From the NCBI GenBank assembly GCA_026129485.1, contig JAHCHY010000005.1, positions 124,001 through 188,000 on the forward strand: a stretch of 64,000 bases of DNA, given 5' to 3'. The position numbers and the translations under genes were made by a program. Below, piece after piece: positions 1 through 38,621 of this stretch. The notes under the pieces were generated by a model. The model saw only the letters and a list, made by a program, of their open reading frames with translations, ran no database searches and was not told where the DNA came from. The first letter of the stretch is position 1. Every line of letters starts with the position of its first letter. The DNA comes from Cyclobacteriaceae bacterium (lineage in GTDB: Bacteria; Bacteroidota; Bacteroidia; Cytophagales; Cyclobacteriaceae).

Positions 1-39
1 TTTTGTTTTGCTTAACTTACAGTCCAAAAATTGATCTCA

Positions 40-618
40 ATGCCGAATCTTTACGTCATAGCAGGATGCAACGGGGCTGGTAAAACCACCACTTCATTCA
101 CTGTGTTGCCAGAGATGCTAAACTGCAAGGAGTTTGTTAATGCAGATGAGATTGCGCGCGGCCTTTCCCCTTTTCAGCCCGAAACGGTTTCTTTTCAGGC
201 GGGGAGAATTATGTTAGCCCGTATCAGTGAATTGATAAATTCAAAAGTCGATTTTGGTTTCGAAACGACACTGGCAACGAAAAGCTATATTTCGCTTTTG
301 AATAATAGCAAGAGAAAAGGATATACCGTAATGTTGATCTTCTTTTGGCTGGAATCAGTCGAACTTGCACAGACCAGGGTACGAGAACGTGTAAAAAAAG
401 GAGGGCATAACATTCCTCCAGATATCGTTCACCGAAGATATCATCGCGGTATGGCTAACTTTTTCAGACTCTACAAAAACAACGTAGATGCCTGGCTTTT
501 GTACGACAACTCGCATAACGTTCCCAAGCTTGTGGCCCGCCAGAAGCGAAATGAGGAAGTTGTTATAAATAATATCGATATTTGGAACACAATTCTTACC
601 CATAATGACAAACGCTGA
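40..618 (+). CDS. Zeta-toxin-like P-loop kinase (COG4185 type)
   Basis: This is a small P-loop protein of 192 aa. A Walker A motif GCNGAGKTT lies at residues 9-17, followed by a conserved NADEIARGL segment and a FGFETTLA segment, and then an RVRERVKKGGHNIP stretch with a downstream RRYHRG. This layout matches the predicted ABC-type ATPase/kinase group related to zeta toxins, which phosphorylate UDP-activated sugars; whether this protein does so is inference. I chose the ATG at 40 over a TTG at 31 because family members begin a few residues before the P-loop. The 3' end overlaps the next small gene by 14 bases, which suggests translational coupling and a toxin-antitoxin-like unit. The window starts just upstream, so any promoter is not visible. 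Confidence 0.8.
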   Translation: MPNLYVIAGCNGAGKTTTSFTVLPEMLNCKEFVNADEIARGLSPFQPETVSFQAGRIMLARISELINSKVDFGFETTLATKSYISLLNNSKRKGYTVMLIFFWLESVELAQTRVRERVKKGGHNIPPDIVHRRYHRGMANFFRLYKNNVDAWLLYDNSHNVPKLVARQKRNEEVVINNIDIWNTILTHNDKR

Positions 619-1632: not shown

Positions 1633-2805
1633 TTATTTCTTAGGCAAGAATGAAAGATAGCTATTCACATAGCTTTGTGGTATTTTTTCTTGCTCGAGTC
1701 TGTTTTTGCTGTTGAGAGATTTTAAATGTTGATATAAAGTTGCTTCCTGCTCCGTCAATAAATTCAGTTGAGCTGATTGATTCCGAGAACCATCTACTGC
1801 AGATTCATAAAATTGTTCGAAAGTGGACTTATCCATCATTAAACTCTTTACTTTAGGATAATAATTTCTTATCTGATGAAGTATTTGAAAACCATGTTCA
1901 TCAATATCACCCCAGTAAAAAATATTTTTAGTCTGTAACCAAAATATATTTTTCAAATAACTTACCTGAAAGCCTCCGCCACTCCAAATGGTCATTGTAG
2001 ATAGTATGAGTGGAAGTGTAAGGAAGTTCATTTTATTTTCAGTAATTATAATGTTTTCCGCAACCAAATCTATTCGTCTGAAATTAGATAACGGAATGCT
2101 GATGTCAGATATACTTCCATTATAAAAAAATAGTGCCTGATCTAAACTACGCACTCTAATCAAAGGCTCATCATATTTTAGAAAGTAACGTTCAGCAAAA
2201 CGGTTGCTGTTGGGGTTTCGAACATATTCAGGAATTAAAAAATCAAGTAATGATTGGAGTAACCTTGCATTTTCCTCAAGAAATTTTGTGTGAACATTAA
2301 TTGGTAGTTGACGAGGATAAAGATTAGGGCGCGGTGTATCAATGAAGTATTGACACACTTTCATTATATCGCTCCAATTTATCTTTGACTCGCATAACCA
2401 TAGACAGTTATTAAGCGTCCATTCTTGTAATGAAAATATTGTTTCTGTAACCTGTTTATAGTTTTTCAAAAATGCTTGCCAGTCTTTTTTCTTTCCAATA
2501 AAGGAAACGTAGTCATCTGGTGTTTCAAATTCGATGAACTCAGGCAACTCATGAGTCCCTGTTCGTCTAAAGTTTTGCTGTTCGGTCTTTACTACGTACC
2601 CAGTTCCTGTTCTATTCTTTGAGTAAAGATAGAGGTGTTCAATTTGCTGCTGAAGGGTTTGAAATTGGCTTGTCACATCTTTCGGTCTTACTTTGCCAAT
2701 TCGGTCAATTCTCTTTGGAAAGAATTGTTCATCGGATATGTGACTTTGAAGAAAGGGCTTCCACCATTTGGAAGCCTGTTTTTTTATTTCATCCGGTGTG
2801 ATCAT
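1633..2805 (-). CDS. jetD: Wadjet protein JetD (DUF3322/DUF2220, Toprim nuclease)
   Basis: A 390-aa protein that fits JetD in length. An N-terminal DUF3322-like arm is followed by a Toprim-type C-terminal half. It has Glu256 in ITENKMNF, WSGGG at 274-278, the acidic DxD motif at Asp300/Asp302 in GDIDEHG, and a terminal RLEQEKIP motif at 369-376. In characterised Wadjet systems JetD is the nuclease that cleaves plasmid DNA after loop extrusion by JetABC. The ATG overlaps the jetC stop by 4 bases, so it is the last gene of the operon, ending at the bidirectional terminator. The coding sequence is noticeably A/T-rich compared with the core genes from 8.8 kb on. Confidence 0.92.
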   Translation of the reverse strand: MITPDEIKKQASKWWKPFLQSHISDEQFFPKRIDRIGKVRPKDVTSQFQTLQQQIEHLYLYSKNRTGTGYVVKTEQQNFRRTGTHELPEFIEFETPDDYVSFIGKKKDWQAFLKNYKQVTETIFSLQEWTLNNCLWLCESKINWSDIMKVCQYFIDTPRPNLYPRQLPINVHTKFLEENARLLQSLLDFLIPEYVRNPNSNRFAERYFLKYDEPLIRVRSLDQALFFYNGSISDISIPLSNFRRIDLVAENIIITENKMNFLTLPLILSTMTIWSGGGFQVSYLKNIFWLQTKNIFYWGDIDEHGFQILHQIRNYYPKVKSLMMDKSTFEQFYESAVDGSRNQSAQLNLLTEQEATLYQHLKSLNSKNRLEQEKIPQSYVNSYLSFLPKK

Positions 2806-5800
2806 ATTTTATCTTCACTTTGAAAAACACCATTACGCTTTAATTTTTCTAATTCGTATTCTTCTTTTGTGAAATTGCTGACCTGTGAATCGTTCCCCTC
2901 TCGATTACTTACGAAATGAAATGAACTAACGTGCCCCTCAATAACATGAATCTTTTGCAGCGGAGTAACGATGAGAAGCTGTAAGTTTAGTTTCTTGAAT
3001 AACTCTAATCCGTAACGGGTGCTTTCATCACTTCCACGCCCAAAGGCTTCATCGATAACAACAAAGCGAAAAGTGCGACTTTTACTCTCCTCAAACTGTA
3101 AACCAAACTGATAGGCCAAAGCACTAGCCAAAATGGTATAGGCCAGCTTTTCCTTTTGTCCACCACTTTTGCCACCAGAACTTTCATAAAATTCTTTTTC
3201 AGTATTGTCTGCACGATAACGTTCACTGGCATTGAATTCAAACCATTGTCTGACGTCTGTAACAGTATTAGTCCAATCCTTGTCAACTGTTTCCATGCTG
3301 ACAAAGCGGTCAAGAATTTGCTTTACTTGTTCATATTTCTCTTCTGTGTACAACTCATTGTTACTGCTGAAGGAATGAGTGTAGCATTTTTTTAAGTCTT
3401 CTTTGAATAAATGAACATGTTTATTATCAGCTGCATCCATTTGGATGGTGATGTAAGTGTCAAGAGTAGAATTGTATACGATCAATGAGAGGTGCTGATT
3501 GATCATTCTTACTTTTTGCTTAATGTCATTTTCGTGTTTTTGAAGCTGACTATCAAATACTGCAATACTATTTATTGTATTCTTATTCAGTTCTTCTTTA
3601 AACCGTTCTTCATGACGTTTCAAGTCCTCGGAAACTAATTTTTCATATTTCTTCATGTACTCTGCCCGGGCGTCAATGCTTTCGGTTATTTCATCGTACT
3701 CGGCTTTCGAGTGTTGTTTTATTTCCCGCATTTTGCTCTCGATGGATGAGCGGTGACCGGTTTGCTTTCCGCGAAGTTTTTTTAATTCTCCGCTTTCGCC
3801 CTGAAACAGCTTTCTGAATTCTTCTTTTCGGTTATCTATATTTCGAAGCGTAATATTCTTATCTGTTAATTTTTCCCCGATAACGGTATACCATTTTTCC
3901 TTTAGGGTCTTATGTATTTGTTCTGTTTGTGTACTCGAATCCGCTTTATCCGCTTCATGAGTTTTTATTCTATCTTTTAATACTGCAATTTGTCCCGTGA
4001 CCTCTTTTTCCTCTTCTTTGGTATCAATTATTTGTTGTTCCACTTCTGATTTGTTCCGTTCAAGCAGAGCGAGCTTGTCGTTGTTGCTTAATAGCTCTTT
4101 TCGTTCCTTTTCCAATTGATAAATCCTCTCTACGTGGTATTGCCAGTTGATTCTTGAAAAATCTTTCAAATAAAGAATGTTCCCTAATAATAACTTTAAA
4201 TCACGATTAACTTTTTCCTCGGATTCTATTGAGAATATTTCTGTTTTAAGCTTTTCAATAGTGTCTTCCAGTTTTTCAATGGATACTTCCAGAGCTTTTA
4301 TTTTCTCAGTATTACTCCAGCCTAAAACATAATTACGCCTGTCATCCAATCTTCGCCTGTCATCTTTAGTATGACGTATCCGACCACTTTTGATTAAGCC
4401 CTGTTGAGTAATGCCAAAAGGCACATGTTGCAACCCCTGCACATTAGTGCATATATAGTCGCCAAAACTGCGTTGTAAATAGTTTTCTATCCAATCATAA
4501 AAAGGTGTATCGGGTTTTATTTCAATTTTGTAAGCAATACTTTCGTTGTCCAAATCCTTGTTAACACGAGAGATGTTTTGCAGGTCGGTTTCAAGGTATG
4601 TTAGTTTAATGCCGCGTCCATCAATTCCCCGCAATGGATTATCGTTGACATAATTACTTACGCTTCGATAGTGACTTTTAGGAACAAGCATACTAATACC
4701 TGTGTCGTGCAAAAGTTTCTCGATAGCGCCTTCCCACCCTGTTTCCTCATCTCGTACTTTTAGTAATTCCCCTGCGAACGGTAGATCAGACTCATCTATA
4801 CGAAGGTCGTTACATAATTGTGTTCTGAATCCGACTAACCAGGCAGGGATTTGTGTTTCACGTTCTTTTAGCGATTCATATTCTTCCTGTTCTGATTGGA
4901 ATTCAGTTTCCTGTTTGCGTAGACTGCTAATAAGATTGTCTCGTTTTTCTCGCAGTTCTTTCTCTTTCGCTTCACATTGTTGGTTACGCTCATTAGCCTT
5001 GTTTATATTCGATTGAAAGTCATTCTCGTTTTCAACTTTCTTTAAACCGCATTTTACTGCTAAATTCTCATAACCATCAAACTCCTTTCGCTTGTCCTCT
5101 TTGTCTTGTTCGTGACGTTTAATTTCTTCTGCGATTTGTTCAATTCGTTTGCCTCCGTTATTGGCTATATCCTGAAGAATGGCTTGCCTTTTATTTTCAA
5201 GTTCATTAAGCTCTCTTGCTAGTCGTTGCTGCTTTTGGCTTTCCTTCTCAATTTCTTCCTTCGCTTTTTCGATAGCCTCTTCAAGCAACACGATTTTCTT
5301 TTCAGCGAACCATGCAGGCATAACGCCTAACATAGCTTCAATATCTTCTATTTCGCGTGTTATATTTCCATACTCAATGGAAGCTTCTGTTAGTGGTTTT
5401 AGTATTTGGTATTGTTCGCGGGCATGCACAACAGCTTCATGTGATTTTTTGAGATCATCAAAACGTTTTAGCAAAGCTGTGATTTGATCTTTAACATCAG
5501 TTCGTTCCAGCATCTGCTCCCGAACAAAATCCGTAAGACTGCTAACAGATTTCATAGATACTGTTTGGTAGAACAGATCTATAGCTTTGTCGCTATTCAT
5601 TCCGAAAAGCCTGCGGAATTGCTCACTGTATTGCAAGAAATTATCACTGAATAATTGAATACCGTCAATGTTGCGTAGCTTTTTTCTAAGTTCATTAATG
5701 TCGGCAAAGCCGCTAAAGTGTGTAGTGATGGAAAGAGGTGAAGTACTTATCACAAGTAATTTTTCCACTTTTCCATCTTTGCCAATCCAAAATAGTTGTG

Positions 5801-6200
5801 CTAGGCAAATTGTTTCATTATACCCCTCATTATAAAAATTGCCAATTATAACAGCATAAGTATTGTCGTCAGGACGCAGATATACTTTTTTGGCTACCTT
5901 GGTTATTTCTTCTTTTTCTTTTTTGAACTCACCCTTTACGTAGCTAAGTAGGTTGCGCTCTTTTCCTTCTGCACCGGCAGCTTTATTGAATACAATTCTG
6001 TTGTGCGGCACTAAAAGACACGTCAACGCATCTACTAGCGTAGACTTACCAGAGCCTATATCGCCTGTGAGTAATGCGTTATGTCCGTTGGGCTCTATCT
6101 TCCAACGATTTTTGTTAAATGTTCCCCAGTTGAGAACCTCAAGGTATTGAAGACGAAAGCCGGCTAGTTTTTGGCTCGATGAATCAAACAAAGTATCCAT
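2802..6200 (-). CDS. jetC: Wadjet SMC-like ATPase JetC
   Basis: An SMC/MukB-like ATPase of 1132 aa. Walker A GDIGSGKS lies at residues 46-53. A very long coiled-coil region with a central hinge-like globular part follows. The ABC signature SGGKSGGQKEKL is near 1008-1019, and Walker B FVVIDEAF is near 1046-1053. JetC is the motor of the Wadjet complex, which senses small circular DNA by loop extrusion. The frame is open back to 6272, but that would overlap jetB by 59 bases. ATG 6200 (protein start MDTLFD) leaves a 13-base gap and keeps the expected spacing to the P-loop, so I chose it. Confidence 0.93.
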   Translation of the reverse strand: MDTLFDSSSQKLAGFRLQYLEVLNWGTFNKNRWKIEPNGHNALLTGDIGSGKSTLVDALTCLLVPHNRIVFNKAAGAEGKERNLLSYVKGEFKKEKEEITKVAKKVYLRPDDNTYAVIIGNFYNEGYNETICLAQLFWIGKDGKVEKLLVISTSPLSITTHFSGFADINELRKKLRNIDGIQLFSDNFLQYSEQFRRLFGMNSDKAIDLFYQTVSMKSVSSLTDFVREQMLERTDVKDQITALLKRFDDLKKSHEAVVHAREQYQILKPLTEASIEYGNITREIEDIEAMLGVMPAWFAEKKIVLLEEAIEKAKEEIEKESQKQQRLARELNELENKRQAILQDIANNGGKRIEQIAEEIKRHEQDKEDKRKEFDGYENLAVKCGLKKVENENDFQSNINKANERNQQCEAKEKELREKRDNLISSLRKQETEFQSEQEEYESLKERETQIPAWLVGFRTQLCNDLRIDESDLPFAGELLKVRDEETGWEGAIEKLLHDTGISMLVPKSHYRSVSNYVNDNPLRGIDGRGIKLTYLETDLQNISRVNKDLDNESIAYKIEIKPDTPFYDWIENYLQRSFGDYICTNVQGLQHVPFGITQQGLIKSGRIRHTKDDRRRLDDRRNYVLGWSNTEKIKALEVSIEKLEDTIEKLKTEIFSIESEEKVNRDLKLLLGNILYLKDFSRINWQYHVERIYQLEKERKELLSNNDKLALLERNKSEVEQQIIDTKEEEKEVTGQIAVLKDRIKTHEADKADSSTQTEQIHKTLKEKWYTVIGEKLTDKNITLRNIDNRKEEFRKLFQGESGELKKLRGKQTGHRSSIESKMREIKQHSKAEYDEITESIDARAEYMKKYEKLVSEDLKRHEERFKEELNKNTINSIAVFDSQLQKHENDIKQKVRMINQHLSLIVYNSTLDTYITIQMDAADNKHVHLFKEDLKKCYTHSFSSNNELYTEEKYEQVKQILDRFVSMETVDKDWTNTVTDVRQWFEFNASERYRADNTEKEFYESSGGKSGGQKEKLAYTILASALAYQFGLQFEESKSRTFRFVVIDEAFGRGSDESTRYGLELFKKLNLQLLIVTPLQKIHVIEGHVSSFHFVSNREGNDSQVSNFTKEEYELEKLKRNGVFQSEDKI

Positions 6201-6213
6201 TGCTAAGCTTAAA

Positions 6214-6777
6214 TTAATCTGTTGTCTTTCTTTCTGCTGCGTATTGGTGCATTTTCTTAAGTGCCTCATCAATCACATCAGCATTTACGAAACCTTTAAT
6301 TATCCGGTGTATTTCATACTCTTGATCATTCAACTTTCGTAAAAATCCGATTTCAACTATTTTGTTAATAGCCGTAGTGATTTTTTCTTGTTGTTTCGCT
6401 TCATCCGAAGAGACCGGCAAAAAAACCTTTATTCTATTGATAATTTCTTGCTCAGTGATTGTTGTTCGAACGGAACCCCCTTGGGCGTCACGTTCCAATA
6501 AATGTTTTCGGAGCATAATACAGAGTAAAGAATTAAGAAAATTGAGTGGCCTTTTTTCAGCAAGTCTAGGCAACAGATTTTCTTCTTCGTTCCAGTCAAT
6601 TTGTCTTAAAAAGCAAAACCCTTCACTTTTGTTTATGTATAATTCAAGACCTAATGGCAAGAAATACTTCTTAATATCATGTTCATATTCTGATAGGTTT
6701 TCCCACACCTCTCTTTGATGGTCATATACAATTCCTTTTAATAAGGCTATCAGGCTTAATGAATATTCCTTTTGCAT
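6214..6777 (-). CDS. jetB: Wadjet protein JetB (DUF4194)
   Basis: A 187-aa protein located between jetA and jetC, with the size and winged-helix-like pattern expected of JetB (a kleisin-interacting KITE/MukE-like subunit, DUF4194). The central segment LNFLNSLLCIMLRKHLLERD and a C-terminal helical part (KITTAINKIVEIGFLRKL) are the recognisable portions. It starts 3 bases after the jetA stop, so the two are translated from one message. Assignment rests on gene order plus sequence character. Confidence 0.88.
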   Translation of the reverse strand: MQKEYSLSLIALLKGIVYDHQREVWENLSEYEHDIKKYFLPLGLELYINKSEGFCFLRQIDWNEEENLLPRLAEKRPLNFLNSLLCIMLRKHLLERDAQGGSVRTTITEQEIINRIKVFLPVSSDEAKQQEKITTAINKIVEIGFLRKLNDQEYEIHRIIKGFVNADVIDEALKKMHQYAAERKTTD

Positions 6778-6780
6778 GAG

Positions 6781-8208
6781 TTAACGATTAAAAATGATTA
6801 GCGGAGCTTGTAGTCGATAGGTCTTTCCACTTTCTTGATTTTCTACTATTATTTCTTCTTGCAATTCACGGTTCACTAAATGTTTCTCATCGTTTGTCGC
6901 AAGTTGTATGTATCCAAGTATTTCCGTTATCCCCTTGGTGGGACGATAGTGGGTCAATAATTCAGACAATGAAACCTGTGATTTGTTTCGAAGTAATGCT
7001 TTTACGTTGTTTCTCAGTTCCTCTATATCAACATAAAATTGCTCAAATAATGCATCTGTATCGGCAGCCGCCAATCCTTCTTCTACAGCAGTTTTTTCAA
7101 ACGCAATTTTTGTGGGCGGACTGAAAAGTGGACGTTCCATTGTTAATACTGGCTTGAAAAGTCCGCTTATTTCTATCCAGGTTTCCTGGAGATTGAGTTC
7201 ATCTTTATGATCCATTAGCAAGCTTTCAATAGTCTCAATGTTGTGTAGAATATGCCTGCTTTCGGAGAGGTTTTTTTGCTCAACATACTTCCTTAATTGC
7301 TCTATCAACCCATCGTTACTGCGATTAACTTTATCTCCAGCTTCAACAAGGTTGGCTTTAATTCGATCTACAACTTGTTCTTTTTTTATTTCCTGTATTT
7401 CGGGTAATGCATTTATTCTTTCAATCAAAGCTTCTAGTTCGTTTTGCATTTGTTCGCTCATCAAAAATTCCCAAAATGCCCGAAAACTTTTTCCTTGATC
7501 TGTGTTCCATAAGTAATCCTGCTGTTGAAAAATATTGTCAAGTAAATCGGCCTTGGCAAGATTGCTTTTAATAATTGTCTGGCGTGTTTGTGTATCCAGT
7601 TCTCGAAAATTCTCTTCCACCTGTCTAAAGTCTGAAAGCAAGCGCTTGGCCGTTTCCTCTGCCAGAAAATAGGTTTCTTTTACCTCTGTTTCAGAAGGAC
7701 GAATAAAATTGCCTTTTTGTATTTGTTCAATTTCTTTGTCGATTTTGCTTCGCTCTTCACGTAGTTTTTGAATTCGTTCGTATGGACCTGATGTGGTGTT
7801 GACAATCTGTTGAAGTAAATTGAAAAATTGAATAAGACGACTATGTGTGCCTACGAATTGTTGTTTGTTTAGATCTTCCAACCATTTTAATGCGTTTTCG
7901 GTGGCCGGAGAAAGTTCATAAACTGGTTCATCAGTAGCTGTCTCATAGTATCTGCGTAAGTACCCATGTTGTGCCCAACGTTGAAGGTATTCTATTGATA
8001 ATTGATTGTAATCTGTGATGCCTTGTCGTTCAAGAGAATAAATGAAATCACTAAGTAAGCTTTGTAATTCTCCCTGCGAATAGGAGATTCTGTCCTGCTG
8101 CTTAAAGGCCAAGTGAATAAATGCAATAAGTAGTGGAAAGTGTTCTGCCCTTAGCAGTTGAAGCGTTTTGTCATTTCTGTAGAGAGATAAGGATTTTTCG
8201 TAGTTCAT
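6781..8208 (-). CDS. jetA: Wadjet protein JetA (DUF3375)
   Basis: A 475-aa protein that is first in the Wadjet operon and corresponds to the kleisin-like JetA (MukF-like, DUF3375). The N-terminus has the family-like pattern LQLLRAEHFPLLIAFIHLAF. The middle is helical and coiled (residues about 140-340), and the C-terminus is compact and ends SGKTYRLQAPLIIFNR. The frame is open to a TTG at 8223, but the first ATG is at 8208, and I take that as the start. No clear TAnnTTTG promoter is visible in the 109 bases between it and the OsmC gene. With jetB, jetC and jetD it makes a complete type I set. Confidence 0.92.
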   Translation of the reverse strand: MNYEKSLSLYRNDKTLQLLRAEHFPLLIAFIHLAFKQQDRISYSQGELQSLLSDFIYSLERQGITDYNQLSIEYLQRWAQHGYLRRYYETATDEPVYELSPATENALKWLEDLNKQQFVGTHSRLIQFFNLLQQIVNTTSGPYERIQKLREERSKIDKEIEQIQKGNFIRPSETEVKETYFLAEETAKRLLSDFRQVEENFRELDTQTRQTIIKSNLAKADLLDNIFQQQDYLWNTDQGKSFRAFWEFLMSEQMQNELEALIERINALPEIQEIKKEQVVDRIKANLVEAGDKVNRSNDGLIEQLRKYVEQKNLSESRHILHNIETIESLLMDHKDELNLQETWIEISGLFKPVLTMERPLFSPPTKIAFEKTAVEEGLAAADTDALFEQFYVDIEELRNNVKALLRNKSQVSLSELLTHYRPTKGITEILGYIQLATNDEKHLVNRELQEEIIVENQESGKTYRLQAPLIIFNR

Positions 8209-8317
8209 TCTAAACTTAAGCAAGTGTAAAGTGTTGTTTTTATAGCCTTTAGACTAAGCTCTACCGTTTATCCATGGTGCAAATGCGCAAACCCCCAGAG
8301 AAACAGATTTTTCTCAC

Positions 8318-26160: not shown

Positions 26161-26188
26161 AACCCTCCACGTGTTGGAGGGTTTTTTT
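26161..26188. terminator. Terminator between gldJ and comF
   Basis: The stem AACCCTCCA (26161-26169) pairs with its complement at 26175-26183 around a 5-base loop, with T-run 26182-26188 after it and A-rich sequence before it. It can serve both convergent genes; the comF stop codon overlaps its tail. Confidence 0.8.
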
Positions 26189-26909
26189 ATGCCTCGGCCA
26201 GGCAGGCTACACTTAATTCTTTACAACCAGCATCAAGCAAACAACCTCCGCAGGCTTCTAATGTGGCCCCGGTAGTCATCACATCATCAACCAACAGTAT
26301 GCGCTTGTCTCGAATCCTGTCTTCATTAAGAATATCAAACACGCTTTCTACATTATGCCAGCGCTCGGTTTTCGTTTTGCGCGTTTGTGTTTTTGTGCTT
26401 ACCGTACGGGTGCTTACGGATTCGTCCCACGGAATTTCAAGTGCAGCAGCAAGACCTTTTGCAATGCTGGCGCTTTGATTGTATCCGCGTGCGCGTTTAC
26501 GACTAATGTGTAAAGGCACCGGTATAATTACATCAAACTCATTAGCATAGCCGTTATCAAACATTTCCCGCCCAAACACCCTTCCCAATACCTCGCCCAC
26601 TTCCGGATGATTGTTGTACTTTAACTGGTGCAGCAGCTTTTGTACCAGGCCCTGCTTGCGAAACTTGAGAAAGGCCAGGCCATACCTGAGCTTAAGCCGC
26701 CCTTGCAGGCGTAACATTACCGGGTTTTGGTAATTGTAGAGGTAATTGGTTTTGGGCAGATTGTTAATACAATAGGTGCATAAAATATTCTCTCCTCTAT
26801 ACAATGTGTTGGAGCACCCCAGGCAATAATTCGGGTAAACGAGCGAAACAAAATCCTGCAACAGGTTAATGACCCTGGCTGCATTTGATTTGACCTGATT
26901 TGAGCCCAT
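26187..26909 (-). CDS. ComF-family phosphoribosyltransferase-like protein
   Basis: A 240-aa protein of the ComF/GntX family. N-terminal zinc-finger cysteines (CLGC and CTYC, about residues 30-54) are followed by FDVIIPVPLHISRKRARGYNQ and a PRPP-binding loop in RILLVDDVMTTGAT. In naturally competent bacteria ComF helps DNA uptake; in other species its role is uncertain. It is divergent from the CMD gene, with only 21 bases between starts. Confidence 0.9.
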   Translation of the reverse strand: MGSNQVKSNAARVINLLQDFVSLVYPNYCLGCSNTLYRGENILCTYCINNLPKTNYLYNYQNPVMLRLQGRLKLRYGLAFLKFRKQGLVQKLLHQLKYNNHPEVGEVLGRVFGREMFDNGYANEFDVIIPVPLHISRKRARGYNQSASIAKGLAAALEIPWDESVSTRTVSTKTQTRKTKTERWHNVESVFDILNEDRIRDKRILLVDDVMTTGATLEACGGCLLDAGCKELSVACLAEA

Positions 26910-31873: not shown

Positions 31874-31889
31874 CGTTCCACGTGGAACA
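31874..31889. promoter_or_regulatory. parS-like site 1
   Basis: CGTTCCACGTGGAACA: a 14-base perfect palindrome GTTCCACGTGGAAC at 31875-31888. It differs in one base from the full 16-base parS form found at site 2, with 38 bases between centres. It lies 3 bases past the ybeY stop. Confidence 0.7.
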
Positions 31890-31911: not shown

Positions 31912-31927
31912 TGTTCCACGTGGAACA
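31912..31927. promoter_or_regulatory. parS-like site 2
   Basis: TGTTCCACGTGGAACA is a perfect 16-base palindrome matching the general bacterial parS form that ParB (Spo0J) binds to organise the origin region. It ends 14 bases before the mnmG start codon, in its leader. Confidence 0.78.
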
Positions 31928-31941
31928 TAGAAAAATCTAAA

Positions 31942-33804
31942 ATGTTTCCTGAGTACGATGTGATTGTTGTTGGGGCCGGCCATGCCGGTTGCGAGGCTGC
32001 TGCCGCTGCTGCGAATATGGGTTCGCGGGTACTGCTGGTAACCATGAATATGACCACAATAGCCCAAATGTCCTGCAACCCGGCAATGGGCGGTGTTGCC
32101 AAGGGCCAGATTGTGCGAGAGATTGATGCACTCGGAGGATATTCGGGGATTATCTCGGACAAATCCATGATCCAGTTCCGCATGCTGAACCTTTCCAAAG
32201 GCCCGGCCATGTGGAGCCCCCGTACCCAGAACGACAGGATGCTTTTTGCAGAACAGTGGCGCCTGGCGCTGGAAAAAACCCCTAATCTCGACTTCTGGCA
32301 GGAAATGGTAAGCGGGCTGGTTATTAAGGACAACCGGGTAGTGGGAGTACGGACTTCCTTGGGAATAGAGATAATGGCTAAGGCCGTGGTGCTTACCAAT
32401 GGAACGTTCCTGAACGGGAAAATCCACATAGGAGAAAAGAATTTTGGCGGAGGCCGTGTGGCAGAGCGCTCTGCCACCGGTATAACCGAGCAGCTCATTC
32501 AGTTAGGCTTCGAATCAGGCCGGATGAAAACCGGAACACCCCCACGAATAGATGGACGCAGCCTCAATTATTCCGCAATGGAAGAACAACCCGGAGATGA
32601 GCGACCGGGGAAGTTTTCTTTCTCAGATACCAAAGCTTTGGAGAAACAACTGAGCTGCTGGATCACCTATACCAACGAAAGCGTGCACAAACAGCTTGAA
32701 AAAGGTTTCGAGAAATCGCCCATGTTTCAGGGCAGGATAAAAGGGTTGGGGCCACGCTACTGTCCCTCAATTGAAGACAAGATTAACCGGTTTGCAGAGC
32801 GCGAACGCCACCAGATCTTTGTTGAACCGGAAGGCTGGAACACAGTGGAGATTTATGTAAATGGGTTTTCTACATCTCTTCCGGAAGACATACAATACAA
32901 GGCCTTACGGCTTATTCCCGGGTTCGAAAACGCCAAAATGTTCAGGCCCGGCTATGCCATTGAGTACGACTTCTTTCCGCCTACGCAGCTAAAGACCACT
33001 TTAGAAACACAACTCATTGATAATCTGTATTTTGCAGGCCAGATTAACGGTACCACCGGCTACGAAGAAGCAGCCTGCCAGGGGCTGATGGCCGGGATAA
33101 ACGCGCACAACAAGGTACACAACAGGGAGCCCTTTGTCCTGAAAAGATCAGAAGCATACATCGGGGTGTTGATTGATGACCTGGTAAACAAGGGCACACA
33201 AGAGCCTTACCGCATGTTCACATCGCGTGCAGAGTACAGAATATTACTCCGCCAAGACAATGCAGATCTGAGGCTTACCGAGCACGGATACAAATTAGGG
33301 CTTGCCAGTGAGGCCCGGTTTGAAAAAGTGCTGACCAAGAAAAACGACATGAAGCGGCTTGCAAAAGAGCTTGAAGAAATGCGGGCGGAGCCGGAAACAG
33401 TCAACCCGGAGCTTGAACAGTTTGGAACATCGCCCATACCCGAAAAGGTTTCTGTCGTATCGCTTTTGAGGCGACCTCAGCTCGGAATAAATGAGCTATC
33501 AAAACTTGACAGCCGAATCAAAAAATCGCTTGACCAATACAGCGAAGAAGTGCAGCAGCAGGTGGAAATCAACCTGAAGTATGAATCGTACATTGAGCGC
33601 GAACAAAAGCTGGCGCAAAAGATAGAAAGCTTGGAGAACTATAAAATTTTACCAGACTTCGACTATGACCGGGTAAAGGCCCTGTCATCTGAAGCACGCG
33701 AAAAGCTGAAATGCATCCGGCCCGAAACAATCGGACAAATGTCACGCATCAGCGGTGTATCGCCTGCCGATGTTTCCATCTTAACCGTGTATCTTGGCAA
33801 GTAA
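31942..33804 (+). CDS. mnmG: tRNA uridine 5-carboxymethylaminomethyl modification enzyme MnmG
   Basis: A 620-aa FAD protein. The dinucleotide-binding motif VVGAGHAGCEAAAA is near the N-terminus, then GGVAKGQIVREIDALGG, LGPRYCPSIEDKI, and NGFSTSLPEDIQ, with the helical GidA C-terminal domain last. With MnmE it builds the cmnm5 modification at the wobble uridine of several tRNAs. The frame is open to a GTG at 31882 inside the parS region; ATG 31942 matches the family N-terminus. In many bacteria this gene (gidA) lies near the replication origin. Confidence 0.97.
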   Translation: MFPEYDVIVVGAGHAGCEAAAAAANMGSRVLLVTMNMTTIAQMSCNPAMGGVAKGQIVREIDALGGYSGIISDKSMIQFRMLNLSKGPAMWSPRTQNDRMLFAEQWRLALEKTPNLDFWQEMVSGLVIKDNRVVGVRTSLGIEIMAKAVVLTNGTFLNGKIHIGEKNFGGGRVAERSATGITEQLIQLGFESGRMKTGTPPRIDGRSLNYSAMEEQPGDERPGKFSFSDTKALEKQLSCWITYTNESVHKQLEKGFEKSPMFQGRIKGLGPRYCPSIEDKINRFAERERHQIFVEPEGWNTVEIYVNGFSTSLPEDIQYKALRLIPGFENAKMFRPGYAIEYDFFPPTQLKTTLETQLIDNLYFAGQINGTTGYEEAACQGLMAGINAHNKVHNREPFVLKRSEAYIGVLIDDLVNKGTQEPYRMFTSRAEYRILLRQDNADLRLTEHGYKLGLASEARFEKVLTKKNDMKRLAKELEEMRAEPETVNPELEQFGTSPIPEKVSVVSLLRRPQLGINELSKLDSRIKKSLDQYSEEVQQQVEINLKYESYIEREQKLAQKIESLENYKILPDFDYDRVKALSSEAREKLKCIRPETIGQMSRISGVSPADVSILTVYLGK

Positions 33805-34683
33805 ATGACGCTCGAAACAATTTCGGCCTGCCCGATCTGCCACACTAATATTTTTCAACCCTTTATAACGGCAAAAGATTACACGGTAAGTCAACAGGAC
33901 TTTCAGATTGTTACCTGCACCAGATGTGGTTTCACATTCACCAATCCAAGACCATCTGCCGATACCATTCATCAATTCTACCAGTCTGAAAACTATATCT
34001 CACATACCGGGGGCTCCGGTGGATTGATGGACCGGCTCTATCGACTGGCCAGAAACTTTACGTTGAGGTGGAAAGAAAAAATTGTGGCCGATTACTCAAC
34101 AGGCAAAAAGCTTCTTGACTACGGATGCGGCACCGGAAACTTTCTTGGCTATATGAAGCGAAAGAAATGGGAAGTTACCGGTGTAGAGCCCGCAGCCGAA
34201 GCACGGGAAAAAGCAAGCGCCTATGCTACCGTTTATCCAGGCCTTGATTCCGCTACCGAAACATACACGGCCATAACCCTGTGGCACGTATTGGAACATA
34301 TTCACGATCTGAACCAGAAGCTCATTGACCTTAAAAACAAACTTGCTCCTTCTGGCACTATTTTTATTGCTGTTCCGAATTACAAAAGTGCTGATGCCAA
34401 ACATTATGCCGGGCATTGGGCTGCTTATGATGTTCCCCGGCATCTCTGGCACTTCGACAGGCACGCGATGGAAACGGCATTGACACAAGCAGGCTTAAAG
34501 CTGGAAAAAATTATACCCATGAAGTTAGACGCATACTATGTAGCCCTGCTGAGCGAATCGTATAAAAAACCGAAAGCGACAAGCCGATACGTTAACGCTT
34601 TTTGGCAGGCTTTCAAATCCAATCATGCGGCCGCGCGAACAGGAGAGTTTTCGAGTCTTATCTACATTGCAAAACCCATTTGA
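33805..34683 (+). CDS. Class I SAM methyltransferase with N-terminal zinc cysteines
   Basis: A 292-aa protein. Two CxxC pairs (CPIC; CTRC) at residues 9-41 form a zinc knuckle. The SAM-binding domain has LLDYGCGTGNFLGYM, and a WHVLEHIHDL motif after it is typical of methyltransferase type 12 proteins. The substrate cannot be read from the sequence. The ATG follows the mnmG stop directly, so it is probably co-transcribed, and its stop overlaps the start of the next gene. Confidence 0.85.
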   Translation: MTLETISACPICHTNIFQPFITAKDYTVSQQDFQIVTCTRCGFTFTNPRPSADTIHQFYQSENYISHTGGSGGLMDRLYRLARNFTLRWKEKIVADYSTGKKLLDYGCGTGNFLGYMKRKKWEVTGVEPAAEAREKASAYATVYPGLDSATETYTAITLWHVLEHIHDLNQKLIDLKNKLAPSGTIFIAVPNYKSADAKHYAGHWAAYDVPRHLWHFDRHAMETALTQAGLKLEKIIPMKLDAYYVALLSESYKKPKATSRYVNAFWQAFKSNHAAARTGEFSSLIYIAKPI

Positions 34684-36296
34684 AAAAGTTTACTCCCATA
34701 TTCTTTATTCTAACCGCTTGCGCCAGCGTTACTTCTCCTACCGGTGGTCCTAAAGACGAAACGCCACCCGAACTCATCGAATCCTATCCTGCAAACAACC
34801 AGAAAAACTTCAAAGGAAATACGCTTGAACTTTCGTTCAGTGAAATGATTAAATTAAAAGATCCGAAAGAAGAAATCCTGATCATTCCCTCACCGGGAAA
34901 AGAAACAAAATTCATAGTAAGAAAAAACAAGCTCTTTATTGAGCCACAAAATCCCTGGCAGGAAAACACCACCTACAGTCTGAACTTTCGCGATGGCGTA
35001 CAGGATCTGAATGAAGGCAACCCGGCAGAAAACCTGAGGATCGCTTTCAGCACAGGCCCTGTTATAGATTCGCTCAGCATCGCAGGCACAGTACACGAAA
35101 CTTTTTCAGAGAAGATACCGGATAAAATTACAGTCGCCCTATACCAATCCGACACGTTCAATATCTACAATCATACTCCCATCTACTTTACCAAAAGTAA
35201 TAAGGAAGGCAGGTTTAATCTTCAAAACCTTAAACCCGGAACCTACTATATCTATGCCTTCGATGACAAAAACAAAAACCTGAAAGTTGAAAGCAAGACC
35301 GAACGGTTCGGGTTCAGATCTCAACCCATTTTGCTGTCTAATAATACAGACTCCATATCGTTGTCCCTTATCAGAATAGATGCAAGACCCGTACAGCTTA
35401 CATCCGTAAGACATACTGAAAAAACCTCGCGGGTCAGATTCAACAAGGGTCTTGACTCCGTCAAAGTTGTTTCAGAAAAGCCGACACGCTATTCATATGG
35501 CGACAATACCAGTGAGCTCATATTTTATCACGATCTGAACCCGTCTGACTCTATTAAGGCAACACTAACCGCAATAGACAGCATTGGTCAAAAAATTGAC
35601 ACGACCATCTTCGTAAAACGAAGCGATACAAAAATGCCACAGGAAATCTTTGCCATCCGCGAAATAAAAGAAACCTACAATCACCAGGCCCGAAATTACA
35701 CACACCAGGTATCATACAATAAACCGCTTGCCTCAATCACACCCGACAGCATTTATATCCGCTTCGACTCCCTGCGTAAGGAGCCAGTTCCTCTCCGGAA
35801 CTTTCTCATAGACACGATTCGACATACACTAACGCTTCAAATAAAAAATATACCTGCCGATACATCGAAGTCCACAAGCAGAAATAAATTTCCCCTCGCC
35901 CTGATTTATGGTAAGGGAGCGTTCATCAGCACCGCACAGGACACATCCAAACGAATCACAAAAGAAATTAAATTCATAAAAGACGAAGAATCCGGTCTTG
36001 TTAGCATCAAGGTTGAAACCACACAACCACATTTTATCATACAACTTGTAACTACCGATGACAAAATTGTAGACGAAGTAAAAAATGTAAAGGAATATAC
36101 CTTTCGTTTTGTAAAACCGCAGGAATATAAGCTCCGCTTTATCATTGACAAAAACGGGAACGGAAAGTGGGATCCCGGGAACTTCACCACGCAAACAGAA
36201 CCTGAACGCGTACAGTACTACAAATCCGAAGAAGGAAAATACTCCTTTCCCATACGCGCTAACTGGGAATACGGGCCCTTGCTGATAAAATTCTGA
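34680..36296 (+). CDS. Ig-like-domain lipoprotein
   Basis: A 538-aa lipoprotein. I place the start at TTG 34680, overlapping the methyltransferase stop as TTGA, because it gives the signal MKKFTPIFFILTACAS with lipobox LTAC (Cys14). No ATG start fits. Next is GGPKDETPPELIESYPANNQ, the entry of a Big_5/SbsA-like Ig domain, followed by several beta-sandwich repeats and a C-terminal region ending in NGNGKWDPGNF. It is likely an outer-membrane-anchored surface protein of unknown role. The frame is open from 34602, but that extension overlaps the methyltransferase and has no signal peptide. Confidence 0.78.
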   Translation: MKKFTPIFFILTACASVTSPTGGPKDETPPELIESYPANNQKNFKGNTLELSFSEMIKLKDPKEEILIIPSPGKETKFIVRKNKLFIEPQNPWQENTTYSLNFRDGVQDLNEGNPAENLRIAFSTGPVIDSLSIAGTVHETFSEKIPDKITVALYQSDTFNIYNHTPIYFTKSNKEGRFNLQNLKPGTYYIYAFDDKNKNLKVESKTERFGFRSQPILLSNNTDSISLSLIRIDARPVQLTSVRHTEKTSRVRFNKGLDSVKVVSEKPTRYSYGDNTSELIFYHDLNPSDSIKATLTAIDSIGQKIDTTIFVKRSDTKMPQEIFAIREIKETYNHQARNYTHQVSYNKPLASITPDSIYIRFDSLRKEPVPLRNFLIDTIRHTLTLQIKNIPADTSKSTSRNKFPLALIYGKGAFISTAQDTSKRITKEIKFIKDEESGLVSIKVETTQPHFIIQLVTTDDKIVDEVKNVKEYTFRFVKPQEYKLRFIIDKNGNGKWDPGNFTTQTEPERVQYYKSEEGKYSFPIRANWEYGPLLIKF

Positions 36297-36620
36297 ATAA
36301 CTTGTGCAAGCTGTGGATAACCCGCAGAGAAATCCACCGACCCGGACAACTCACCAGATGATCCGGTATAAATTGTTAAAAACAACCAATCCCGATCGGT
36401 TATCCACCGTCCGTGAATAAATCAATACAAAGAACTCACGCGTCTCAAACTATGTTGACAATTAAATAGTATATTCGAAAATCGAGTTAATTCAATCATT
36501 TAAGCTAACGCGGATATCCACATAGCATAAACTTCCGTTTAAGAAAAAGATAGTTATACACATATGCACACCGGTAACGATAACTATAAAAATTTTAAAT
36601 ATTATATAATAAGAATACAA
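36297..36620. other. Candidate chromosomal replication origin (oriC)
   Basis: This 267-base gap plus the start of the TPR gene holds four DnaA-box-like 9-mers. A perfect box lies on the - strand at 36312-36320 (TGTGGATAA). The others are TTATCCACC at 36400-36408, ATATCCACA at 36514-36522 and TTATACACA at 36554-36562, each one base off. An A/T block at 36580-36620 (38 of 41 bases A/T) could be the unwinding element. The parS-like pair and mnmG lie about 4.4 kb upstream. No dnaA gene is visible in the window. The call is an inference from this clustering. Confidence 0.6.
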
Positions 36621-38621
36621 GCCCTCTTATTATGTGGAGTACTTTCTTCCTCATTATTTGCACAGGATATGCAGGAAATACAAATTGCCAACGAATACCT
36701 GCTGAAAGGCGAAAAAGAAAAAGCCATTACCCTGTATGAACAACTGGCCAAGAAAAATGAAAATACACCGCACATTCATAACAACTATTTTAACCTTTTA
36801 CTGGATGCCGGGCGTTTTGCGCAAGCAGAAGATTATGTTGAAAAACTTATCAGGCGCGATCCTCGGCTTACTTACCGTATGGATCTTGGCCTTGTGTATG
36901 CGCGTTCGGGCGATCTTACCAAAGCGGATAAATATTTTCGTGCGCTTATCAAAGCACAGGGTGATGATGCCTACAAGCTCAAATCGATGTCTGATTACCT
37001 GGCCGCACGAAACCAGGTGGAGTTTGCCATTGTGGCTTTGCAACAGGCAAGGACTGCAGCGGGAAACAATCTTTACACATTAGAGCTTGCCAACCTCTAC
37101 CGCATTTCCGGTAAACGCGACCAGATGGTACAGGAATACCTCAGTTATGTTACCCAAACACCGGCTAACATCAACTATGTAAAAAACCTGATGCAGATCC
37201 TGCTTTCGAAGCCGGAAGAACTGGAAGCGCTGGAACGACTGCTCTACGATAAGGTACAGCAAAATCAAAACTCGGAAGTATTTGCCGACCTGCTGATCTG
37301 GGTAAACCTGCAACAGAAAAATTTTTACGGAGCATTTATCCAGGCGCGTGCGTACGACAAGCGTTTTAAAAAAGATCAGTCCAAAACACTGGAGATAGCG
37401 CAGATTGCACTGAACAACCAGGATTACGAAAATGCTGACAAAGCCTACAGCTTTGTGATAAAAGAATATGCGCGAACGCCCAACGAACTTCCGGCACGCC
37501 TCGGGCTAATCCAGGCACGTGAAGCCAAAGTGAAAAAGACCTACCCCGTAAACCGCGATTCTGTTAAGTACCTGGTTACTCAGTATCAGGACTTTCGCAA
37601 TTCCTATCCCAATCATCCCAATGCCTTTGAAGCCAACCTGAATCAGGCATTGTTGTATGCCTATTATATGAACGAAAAAGATTCGGCTGTGGAAAGTCTT
37701 AACCAGCTTATTGCCAGTAACAGGGTTTCACCCAACCTGAAAGCAAGAGCAAAAATTGAGCTGGGCGATATTTACCTGCTGAAGGAAGAGCCTTGGGAAG
37801 CAACACTGTTGTACTCGCAGGTAGAAAAATCGCAGCGCGAAACACCGGTTGGTTACGAAGCCAAATTGCGCAATGCCAAACTCTCGTACTTTAAAGGAGA
37901 TTTTTTGCTGGCGCAGGAACATCTCGATATTTTAAAGCAAGCGACTTCACGCGAAATAGCCAACGATGCCATTGACCTGAGCATGCGTATAAAGGAAAAT
38001 ACATTTTACGATCCGGAAGGTTCTGCGTTGAAAGAATTTGCTTCGATCGAATTGCTGGTTGCGCAAAACAAAAATGATCTGGCTTTGGACAGGCTGAAAA
38101 ATTTCAGGGCATTCAGAAGAGTGAAGATGAGCCGCGAAGAAGCAATTCGTAAAGGCCTGTGGTCGCCCGAAAAGCAACTCAATGAGCAAGAGCTGCAGGA
38201 TTTAAAACAGCAGTTGGAGAAACAAAAGCAGGATATGATCTCAGGGAATAAGTCTGGTGATAAGCCTGCCCCGGATTCAGTTTGGGTTGATGAGCTGGTA
38301 AATACTGACCGGCTGGGAATAAAAGATGACGTGTACTGGCTGGAGGCCAACCTGCGTATGAAGCGCGGAGAGTTTGAGCAAGCGTATGCATTACTTGAAA
38401 AAATACTGGCGGAATTCGCAGACGATATATTGGCCGATGACGCTTTCTTTTTGCAGGGCGAATTGCAGGAGCGTTACCTTAAAAACAAAGACAAGGCTAT
38501 GGAAATTTACCGCGAGTTTCTAAACCGCTTTCCTGGAAGTGTTTTTGCGGCCGAAGCCCGAAAACGCTACCGCATTTTGCGCGGAGATTTTTCAGAAGCG
38601 GAAAGCTTGCCTAAGTTTTGA
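36564..38621 (+). CDS. Secreted TPR-repeat protein
   Basis: A 685-aa protein. A signal peptide with a long basic N-region precedes ALLLCGVLSSSLFAQ. Many tetratricopeptide-like helical repeats follow (for example YLLKGEKEKAITLYEQLAKK and YENADKAYSFVIKEYARTPN). A Gln/Lys-rich coiled part lies near residues 535-565, and two more TPR-like repeats lie at the C-terminus. It is probably a periplasmic scaffold protein. Its first 20 codons are extremely A/T-rich and fall in the proposed origin unwinding region, so the start is less certain than the rest. Confidence 0.82.
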   Translation: MHTGNDNYKNFKYYIIRIQALLLCGVLSSSLFAQDMQEIQIANEYLLKGEKEKAITLYEQLAKKNENTPHIHNNYFNLLLDAGRFAQAEDYVEKLIRRDPRLTYRMDLGLVYARSGDLTKADKYFRALIKAQGDDAYKLKSMSDYLAARNQVEFAIVALQQARTAAGNNLYTLELANLYRISGKRDQMVQEYLSYVTQTPANINYVKNLMQILLSKPEELEALERLLYDKVQQNQNSEVFADLLIWVNLQQKNFYGAFIQARAYDKRFKKDQSKTLEIAQIALNNQDYENADKAYSFVIKEYARTPNELPARLGLIQAREAKVKKTYPVNRDSVKYLVTQYQDFRNSYPNHPNAFEANLNQALLYAYYMNEKDSAVESLNQLIASNRVSPNLKARAKIELGDIYLLKEEPWEATLLYSQVEKSQRETPVGYEAKLRNAKLSYFKGDFLLAQEHLDILKQATSREIANDAIDLSMRIKENTFYDPEGSALKEFASIELLVAQNKNDLALDRLKNFRAFRRVKMSREEAIRKGLWSPEKQLNEQELQDLKQQLEKQKQDMISGNKSGDKPAPDSVWVDELVNTDRLGIKDDVYWLEANLRMKRGEFEQAYALLEKILAEFADDILADDAFFLQGELQERYLKNKDKAMEIYREFLNRFPGSVFAAEARKRYRILRGDFSEAESLPKF

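What the first reader, a model, noticed from the sequence alone, without database searches (positions are those of the whole stretch)
36297..36620. Candidate chromosomal replication origin
Seen: four DnaA-box-like 9-mers fall within 251 bases (one perfect, three with one mismatch; chance expectation for boxes with up to one mismatch in 267 bases is about 0.06), next to a 41-base block with 38 A/T. My C/G counts on the + strand of two same-strand genes either side change sign: 74 C against 44 G at 35101-35400, and 53 C against 86 G at 38041-38340. parS-like sites and mnmG lie nearby. Known: DnaA boxes are TTATNCACA-like, and gidA often borders oriC. Inference: this is oriC.
Basis: partly seen in the sequence, partly recalled or inferred. 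Interest (0 to 1): 0.72.

Follow-up and report, generated by a model that had tools for sequence, protein, structure and literature searches.

The report
Chromosomal replication origin beside mnmG
This stretch is almost certainly the place where a bacterium of the Cytophagales group starts copying its chromosome, which is an ordinary part of any bacterium, with the small twist that its easily opened DNA also appears to encode the start of a protein.

Summary
The finding holds and is stronger than stated. The gap has seven DnaA boxes with at most one mismatch, two perfect (36292-36570), not four; the A/T block (38 of 41) is at 36580-36620. It is the best box cluster in the 945 kb (23%) of this genome that I scanned; dnaA is on another contig without a dense cluster. 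In 75 of 80 mnmG loci from related bacteria the best cluster (tied with another place in two) lies 2.0-2.85 kb downstream of mnmG. In a close relative (CP058703.1) the sampled GC-skew minimum falls between 2.500 and 2.606 Mb, the cluster at 2.575 Mb. The genome's only exact parS palindrome lies 4.4 kb upstream. The core (overlapping boxes, C/G spacer, A/T run) resembles the basal unwinding system (BUS), but the window fails its strict trio rule. In this clade the downstream gene's apparent start codon sits in the last box, and the A/T block is coding with strong synonymous constraint. In one distant relative a denser cluster lies 220 kb from mnmG. New member of a known kind.

The parts
36292..36570 (.). 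oriC core: array of seven DnaA-box-like 9-mers, two perfect
   Evidence: top cluster of 945 kb scanned of this genome; position conserved in 75 of 80 loci
36292..36300 (-). DnaA box 1 (TTATTCAGA), overlapping the stop codon of the upstream gene
36312..36320 (-). DnaA box 2 (TTATCCACA, perfect)
36400..36408 (+). DnaA box 3 (TTATCCACC)
36412..36420 (-). DnaA box 4 (TTATTCACG)
36514..36522 (+). DnaA box 5 (ATATCCACA), kept in many close relatives
36554..36570 (+). Tandem boxes 6 and 7 in 8-bp register, overlapping by one base (TTATACACATATGCACA), the likely DnaA loading site next to the unwinding element
   Evidence: such a pair followed by A/T-rich DNA in 69 of 81 loci (selected on both); one of two exact matches to TTATNCACAWWTNCACA in this genome
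36571..36589 (+). C/G-rich spacer (CCGG) and DnaA-trio-like steps; the strict three-trio rule is not met in the window itself
   Evidence: rule from PMC8287927
36580..36620 (.). A/T-rich block (38 of 41), probable DNA unwinding element, lying inside the 5' coding sequence of the TPR gene
36564..38621 (+). TPR-repeat protein gene; its apparent start codon lies inside box 7
34602..36296 (+). Upstream gene (Ig-like/DUF2141 protein) whose stop borders the origin
31942..33804 (+). mnmG (gidA)
31874..31889 (.). parS-like palindrome (CGTTCCACGTGGAACA)
31912..31927 (.). parS palindrome TGTTCCACGTGGAACA, the only exact TGTTNCACGTGNAACA in the draft genome

Best explanation
This is oriC of the chromosome. 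DnaA, encoded elsewhere, binds the seven-box array. The tandem boxes at 36554-36570 aim a DnaA filament across a short C/G-rich spacer into the A/T-rich block at 36580-36620, which melts. Helicase is loaded there and two forks leave. ParB would bind the parS sites 4.4 kb away to segregate the new origins. Shown here: the boxes, their density, conserved position and spacing, a relative's skew minimum, and DNA-level constraint on the A/T block. Inferred: DnaA binding, melting, helicase loading, ParB binding.
For: Seven boxes in 279 bases, about 1e-8 by a Poisson estimate. Score 9 against a next best of 6 in 945 kb of the genome. Best cluster 2.0-2.85 kb downstream of mnmG in 75 of 80 loci, in two of them tied with another place. 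Sampled skew of CP058703.1: two-arm fit R2 0.71, 0 of 100 shuffles as good, minimum between 2.500 and 2.606 Mb with the cluster at 2.5745 Mb. dnaA on another contig with a top score of 3 around it. The only exact parS of the draft beside mnmG, and an exact parS at the start of mnmG in 50 of 80 loci. Pair plus A/T-rich DNA in 69 of 81 loci. Codons 9-16 of the overlapping gene synonymously frozen, 102 of 102.
Against: No measurement of replication. The own genome is a 40-contig draft, so its skew minimum is unknown; on contig C36 the minimum is 43 kb upstream, and in CP058703.1 29 kb upstream, of the cluster. Sampled skew of two other one-contig genomes (G032, G027) was uninformative. In G032, another family, a cluster 220 kb from mnmG (score 8, with the exact tandem pair and 37 of 41 A/T beside it) beats the one near mnmG (score 6). 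ParB is not found in this assembly. 5 of 80 loci lack the cluster at that place, and some of the 75 are weak. The 80 loci are related and not independent. 77% of the own genome was not scanned for clusters.
Confidence: 0.95

Rival explanations
1. The boxes are a DnaA reservoir or a DnaA-regulated promoter of the TPR gene, and the true origin is elsewhere in the genome.
For: The apparent TPR start codon lies in the last box, so DnaA binding should affect its expression. Other small box groups exist: three perfect boxes at C12:133 (score 6) and a perfect tandem pair at C40:173314 (score 3). In the distant G032 a denser cluster lies 220 kb from mnmG.
Against: It does not explain the relative's skew minimum, the parS next door, or the A/T block with its synonymous constraint. 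No denser cluster was found in the 23% scanned. Many loci keep the cluster although no homologue of the TPR gene was detected downstream.
Confidence: 0.03
2. A second, minor or plasmid-like origin: a decayed or integrated replicon carrying DnaA boxes.
For: Nothing specific; the low-GC island at 1633-8223 suggests that the window carries acquired DNA.
Against: mnmG, the Ig-like gene and the box cluster keep the same order in most of the relatives' loci, and no replication-initiator family matched any of the 28 window proteins scanned.
Confidence: 0.01
3. Synonymous freezing of the A/T block reflects translation-start constraints (low mRNA structure), not an unwinding element.
For: Gene starts often avoid structure (recalled); another gene (26187-26909) has 30 of 34 identical codons at codons 2-8 and 35 of 54 at 9-20.
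Against: For codons 9-20 the comparison genes reach 0.38-0.67 against 0.87 here, some on very few sites. A/T-rich DNA follows the pair also in relatives where the gene starts further downstream (the loci were selected partly on A/T).
Confidence: 0.15

Closest known systems
Bacterial chromosomal oriC of the DnaA-box type (as collected in DoriC)
   Same: DnaA-box cluster, adjacent A/T-rich element, nearby mnmG/gidA and parS, skew switch in a close relative
   Different: Not beside dnaA; separated from mnmG by two genes; the A/T element appears to be coding
mnmG-linked origin of a flavobacterium (Algorimicrobium, PMC12843772, passages seen)
   Same: Same phylum; Ori-Finder places the origin at mnmG and the paper says skew agrees
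   Different: Family Flavobacteriaceae, not the relatives found here; box architecture not compared
Basal unwinding system (BUS): tandem boxes, spacer, DnaA-trios (PMC8287927, parts seen)
   Same: Tandem same-strand boxes, 11 bases from the first box to the first trio-like step, C/G-rich gap, A/T-rich run
   Different: The window lacks three consecutive trios by the published rule; 28 of 69 loci meet it. The two boxes overlap by one base
Chromosomal ParABS
   Same: parS palindromes near the origin
   Different: No parB found in this assembly, although 25 of 29 genomes in the same search (own included) have one

Membership tests
Bacterial oriC (DnaA-box type) | Cluster of DnaA boxes well above background | tested here: met
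Bacterial oriC (DnaA-box type) | A/T-rich unwinding element beside the boxes | tested here: met
   also in relatives, (loci selected partly on A/T content)
Bacterial oriC (DnaA-box type) | Located at the chromosome's GC-skew minimum | tested here: inconclusive
   Met in the close relative CP058703.1 at about 100 kb resolution; own draft cannot be tested; contig-scale minimum 43 kb away; G032 and G027 uninformative
Bacterial oriC (DnaA-box type) | Genome encodes DnaA | tested here: met
   (TIGR00362, 528 bits)
Bacterial oriC (DnaA-box type) | Replication starts there in cells | not testable with these tools
   needs marker-frequency data
BUS (basal unwinding system) | DnaA box with up to 2 mismatches, often in tandem with a second | tested here: met
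   the two boxes overlap by one base
BUS (basal unwinding system) | At least three consecutive DnaA-trios (central A, 3'-NAN-5') within 16 bases of a box | tested here: not met
   longest run in the window 1; 28 of 69 loci reach 3
ParABS | parS 16-bp palindrome near the origin | tested here: met
ParABS | parB gene in the genome | tested here: not met
   0 matches in this draft with two models; assembly gap possible, completeness 97.96%

The most novel reading that the evidence does not exclude
In one clade that includes this bacterium the origin's unwinding element has become coding: the start codon of a probably exported TPR protein sits inside the last DnaA box and the A/T block encodes its N-terminal leader. 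One sequence would thus serve orisome assembly and translation start, and DnaA binding would tie that gene's expression to initiation.
Probability: 0.6. Interest if true: 0.42.

Novelty: new member of a known kind. Interest (0 to 1): 0.3.

Why it matters
It points to the origin for a large group in which no box cluster was found around dnaA in the six genomes checked, so that 'next to dnaA' would mislead. It gives a candidate anchor (2.0-2.85 kb downstream of mnmG) for growth-rate estimates from metagenomes and for splitting replichores. The coding unwinding element, if real, is a natural test of how far origin DNA can be recoded.

Tried and rejected
Skew within the contig does not locate the origin: minimum 43 kb from the cluster, then a flat zone. 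Sampled skew in G032 (20 stretches) gave no significant arms (63 of 100 shuffles as good). In G027 only 15 stretches up to 7.1 Mb were obtained and I saw no clear arms; no fit was run. AT skew in CP058703.1 carried no signal. Origin beside dnaA: rejected, top scores in the 3.5 kb around dnaA are 1-3 in six genomes. Strict BUS membership: not claimed, the window fails the three-trio rule.

The tandem-pair pattern as a genome-wide marker: rejected. With one mismatch it occurs in 34 of 39 genomes (115 matches), but the control pattern read backwards occurs in 30 of 39 (64 matches), so its mere presence says little (tallied). The second exact pair of this genome (C40) scores only 3 and has no A/T block (at most 31 of 41).

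Literature: the searches listed no paper that I recognised from its listing as describing a Cytophagales oriC or a chromosomal unwinding element inside a gene; two searches listed only 15 of 43 and 12 of 36 papers. A paper on Flammeovirga second chromosomes (PMC8653839) holds the word oriC 0 times. The library is open-access only. I opened six papers (PMC8287927, PMC6323995, PMC7858055, PMC8653839, PMC10197239, PMC12843772), none whole.

Selection to keep in mind: the background stretch of contig C10 was chosen to include a hit; the other contigs were sampled from their first 20 kb. In one search the pairs were selected on sequence and A/T content, so only the base order after the pair is a result; the shuffle control there ignores kinship of the loci. 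In one search the mnmG end was set to 11900 for most loci from L034 on; one search repeats the count with the true ends and gives the same 75 of 80.

Full report
What is there. The gap between an Ig-like/DUF2141 gene (34602-36296) and a TPR gene (36564-38621) and its edges hold seven matches to TTATNCACA with at most one mismatch within 279 bases, two perfect. Shuffles of the window give 59.4 such matches in 64 kb, so about 0.26 are expected in 279 bases; seven or more has a Poisson chance near 1e-8 at one place. Just after the last box comes the most A/T-rich 41-mer of the window (38 of 41, 36580-36620).

Against the rest of the genome. The genome is a draft of 4,075,102 bases in 40 contigs. 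I scanned all of contig C36 and up to 20 kb of each other contig, 944,863 bases in all. With perfect boxes scored 2 and one-mismatch boxes 1 in 300 bases, the candidate scores 9; the next best is 6 (three boxes at C12:133), then 5. dnaA is on contig C3 and the 3.5 kb around it reaches 3; around dnaA in five other genomes the top score is 1 or 2. Three quarters of the genome was not scanned for clusters. Two whole-genome pattern searches found two places with two perfect same-strand boxes within 30 bases (scores 6 and 5) and one other exact tandem pair, which scores 3 with no A/T block beside it.

Against relatives. mnmG was used to fetch 80 loci from the species-genome collection (more existed; the best 80 were kept). 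In 75 of 80 the best box cluster of the whole locus starts 1.97-2.85 kb downstream of mnmG, as in the window; in two of them (L041, L072) another place scores as high. The five misses are L050, L064, L086, L087 and L092; L092 ends 0.4 kb and L050 2.7 kb after mnmG. Scores among the 75 run from 3 (L090) and 4 (L028, L061, L081) to 18. The loci are related, so this is not 75 independent events. Eight further stretches of the order were read downstream of mnmG; four repeat records already in the 80. Of the other four, G027 scores 16 at 2.65 kb, G032 scores 6 at 1.6 kb, and two of the window's own genus are weak, G007 (4) and G010 (3). In G032, of another family, a place 220 kb from mnmG scores 8 and carries the exact tandem pair and 37 of 41 A/T. 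So in that family either place may be the origin, and the mnmG link should not be taken as universal in the order.

Skew. In CP058703.1 (mnmG 89% identical), 40 stretches of 20 kb spaced about 107 kb give a two-arm pattern with R2 0.71 (0 of 100 shuffles as good). The minimum is between 2.500 and 2.606 Mb and the turn at the other end lies between 0.26 and 0.37 Mb; the box cluster is at 2.5745 Mb. A contiguous 146 kb there has its minimum at 2.5454 Mb, 29 kb from the cluster, and the cluster is the best of that stretch. In the window's own contig the minimum is at 117 kb, 43 kb before the cluster, and the first 40 kb run on balance against the expected sign. G032 and G027 were uninformative. 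Skew therefore supports the region at about 100 kb scale in one relative and no finer.

parS and ParB. The only exact TGTTNCACGTGNAACA in the draft is at window 31912-31927; a second site with one further deviation is at 31874-31889. Both lie in the gap before mnmG, whose conserved frame starts at 31942. Of the 80 loci, 50 carry an exact match, 73 sites in all, each between 209 bases before and 67 after the start of the mnmG match. No ParB gene was found in this draft with two models. In a search of 29 genomes including this one, 25 have it. With completeness 97.96% a gap in the draft is the simplest reason.

Core anatomy. Boxes 6 and 7 overlap by one base in 8-bp register on one strand (TTATACACATATGCACA), followed by CCGG and then the A/T run. 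In 69 of 81 loci (80 plus the window) I found such a pair followed by A/T-rich DNA. Among the 64 distinct sequences the bases after it share a 3-base rhythm, T at 0.53 in one phase against 0.20 and 0.30, a range reached by 0 of 2000 shuffles, though kinship is not controlled. The pair by itself is no marker: with one mismatch it is found in 34 of 39 genomes but the backward control in 30 of 39. The arrangement resembles the basal unwinding system of PMC8287927, of which I read the abstract and outline, the search-method section and the first of two parts of the results. The first trio-like step begins 11 bases after box 6, within the published peak of 10-13. By the paper's rule of three consecutive trios the window fails (run of 1), and 28 of the 69 pass. 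I therefore say that it probably works like a BUS and do not file it as one.

Coding unwinding element. In the window and in L015-L020, L022, L029, L030, L033 and L037, an in-frame ATG of the TPR gene lies inside the second box of the pair. In all but L019 and L029, which also have an upstream TTG, it is the first in-frame ATG, GTG or TTG. The A/T block then encodes the protein's leader. Among seven close sequences, codons 9-16 are identical at 102 of 102 degenerate comparisons with the same residue, against 4277 of 8895 beyond codon 120. The top 12 of 659 windows of 12 codons all start at codons 2-14. For codons 9-20, with another alignment, gives 104 of 120 for this gene against 0.38-0.67 in the seven of nine other genes that had data, some with few sites; one other gene has 30 of 34 at codons 2-8. 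In more distant loci such as Roseivirga (L051, L054, L057), Fulvivirga (L038) and Larkinella (L055, L056) the gene starts downstream of the pair, so the overlap looks derived. Whether that start codon is used was not shown; calling the leader a signal peptide is my reading of the residues.

Known or new. An origin at mnmG is reported in this phylum: PMC12843772 places a flavobacterial origin at mnmG with Ori-Finder and skew (passages). PMC10197239 notes that the origin does not always go with dnaA and uses parS clusters and skew to place origins in 12 gut bacteria, two of them Bacteroidetes (passages). This is thus a new member of a known kind. The coding unwinding element is the only part that I did not meet in the searches, which are narrow.

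Noticed in passing
window 1633-8223, minus strand: Wadjet (JetABCD type I) anti-plasmid system, all four genes matched, in a low-GC stretch (37% against 46% for the window after 8.8 kb).
   Followed up: partly
window 31-618, plus strand: ORF with a Zeta_toxin (PF06414) match, 44 bits, near the Wadjet genes.
   Followed up: no
whole draft genome G000: No ParB found with two models although the parS sites are present and 25 of 29 genomes in the same search have ParB.
   Followed up: partly
G000 contig C40:173314-173330 (L246): A second exact tandem DnaA-box pair (TTATTCACAAATTCACA) that appears with the same letters in G013, G018, G034 and G038; isolated, cluster score 3, no A/T block. Perhaps a conserved DnaA site.
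   Followed up: partly
G032:C1:1527000-1529100 (L245): In a distant relative, five boxes with the exact consensus pair and a 37-of-41 A/T block, 220 kb from mnmG: a possible relocated or second origin-like site.
   Followed up: partly
G000 contig C12:133-153 (L014): Three perfect DnaA boxes at a contig end, the second-best cluster of the sample.
   Followed up: no
window 44088 and 44807: Two perfect DnaA boxes 0.7 kb apart near the OmpA-type genes.
   Followed up: no
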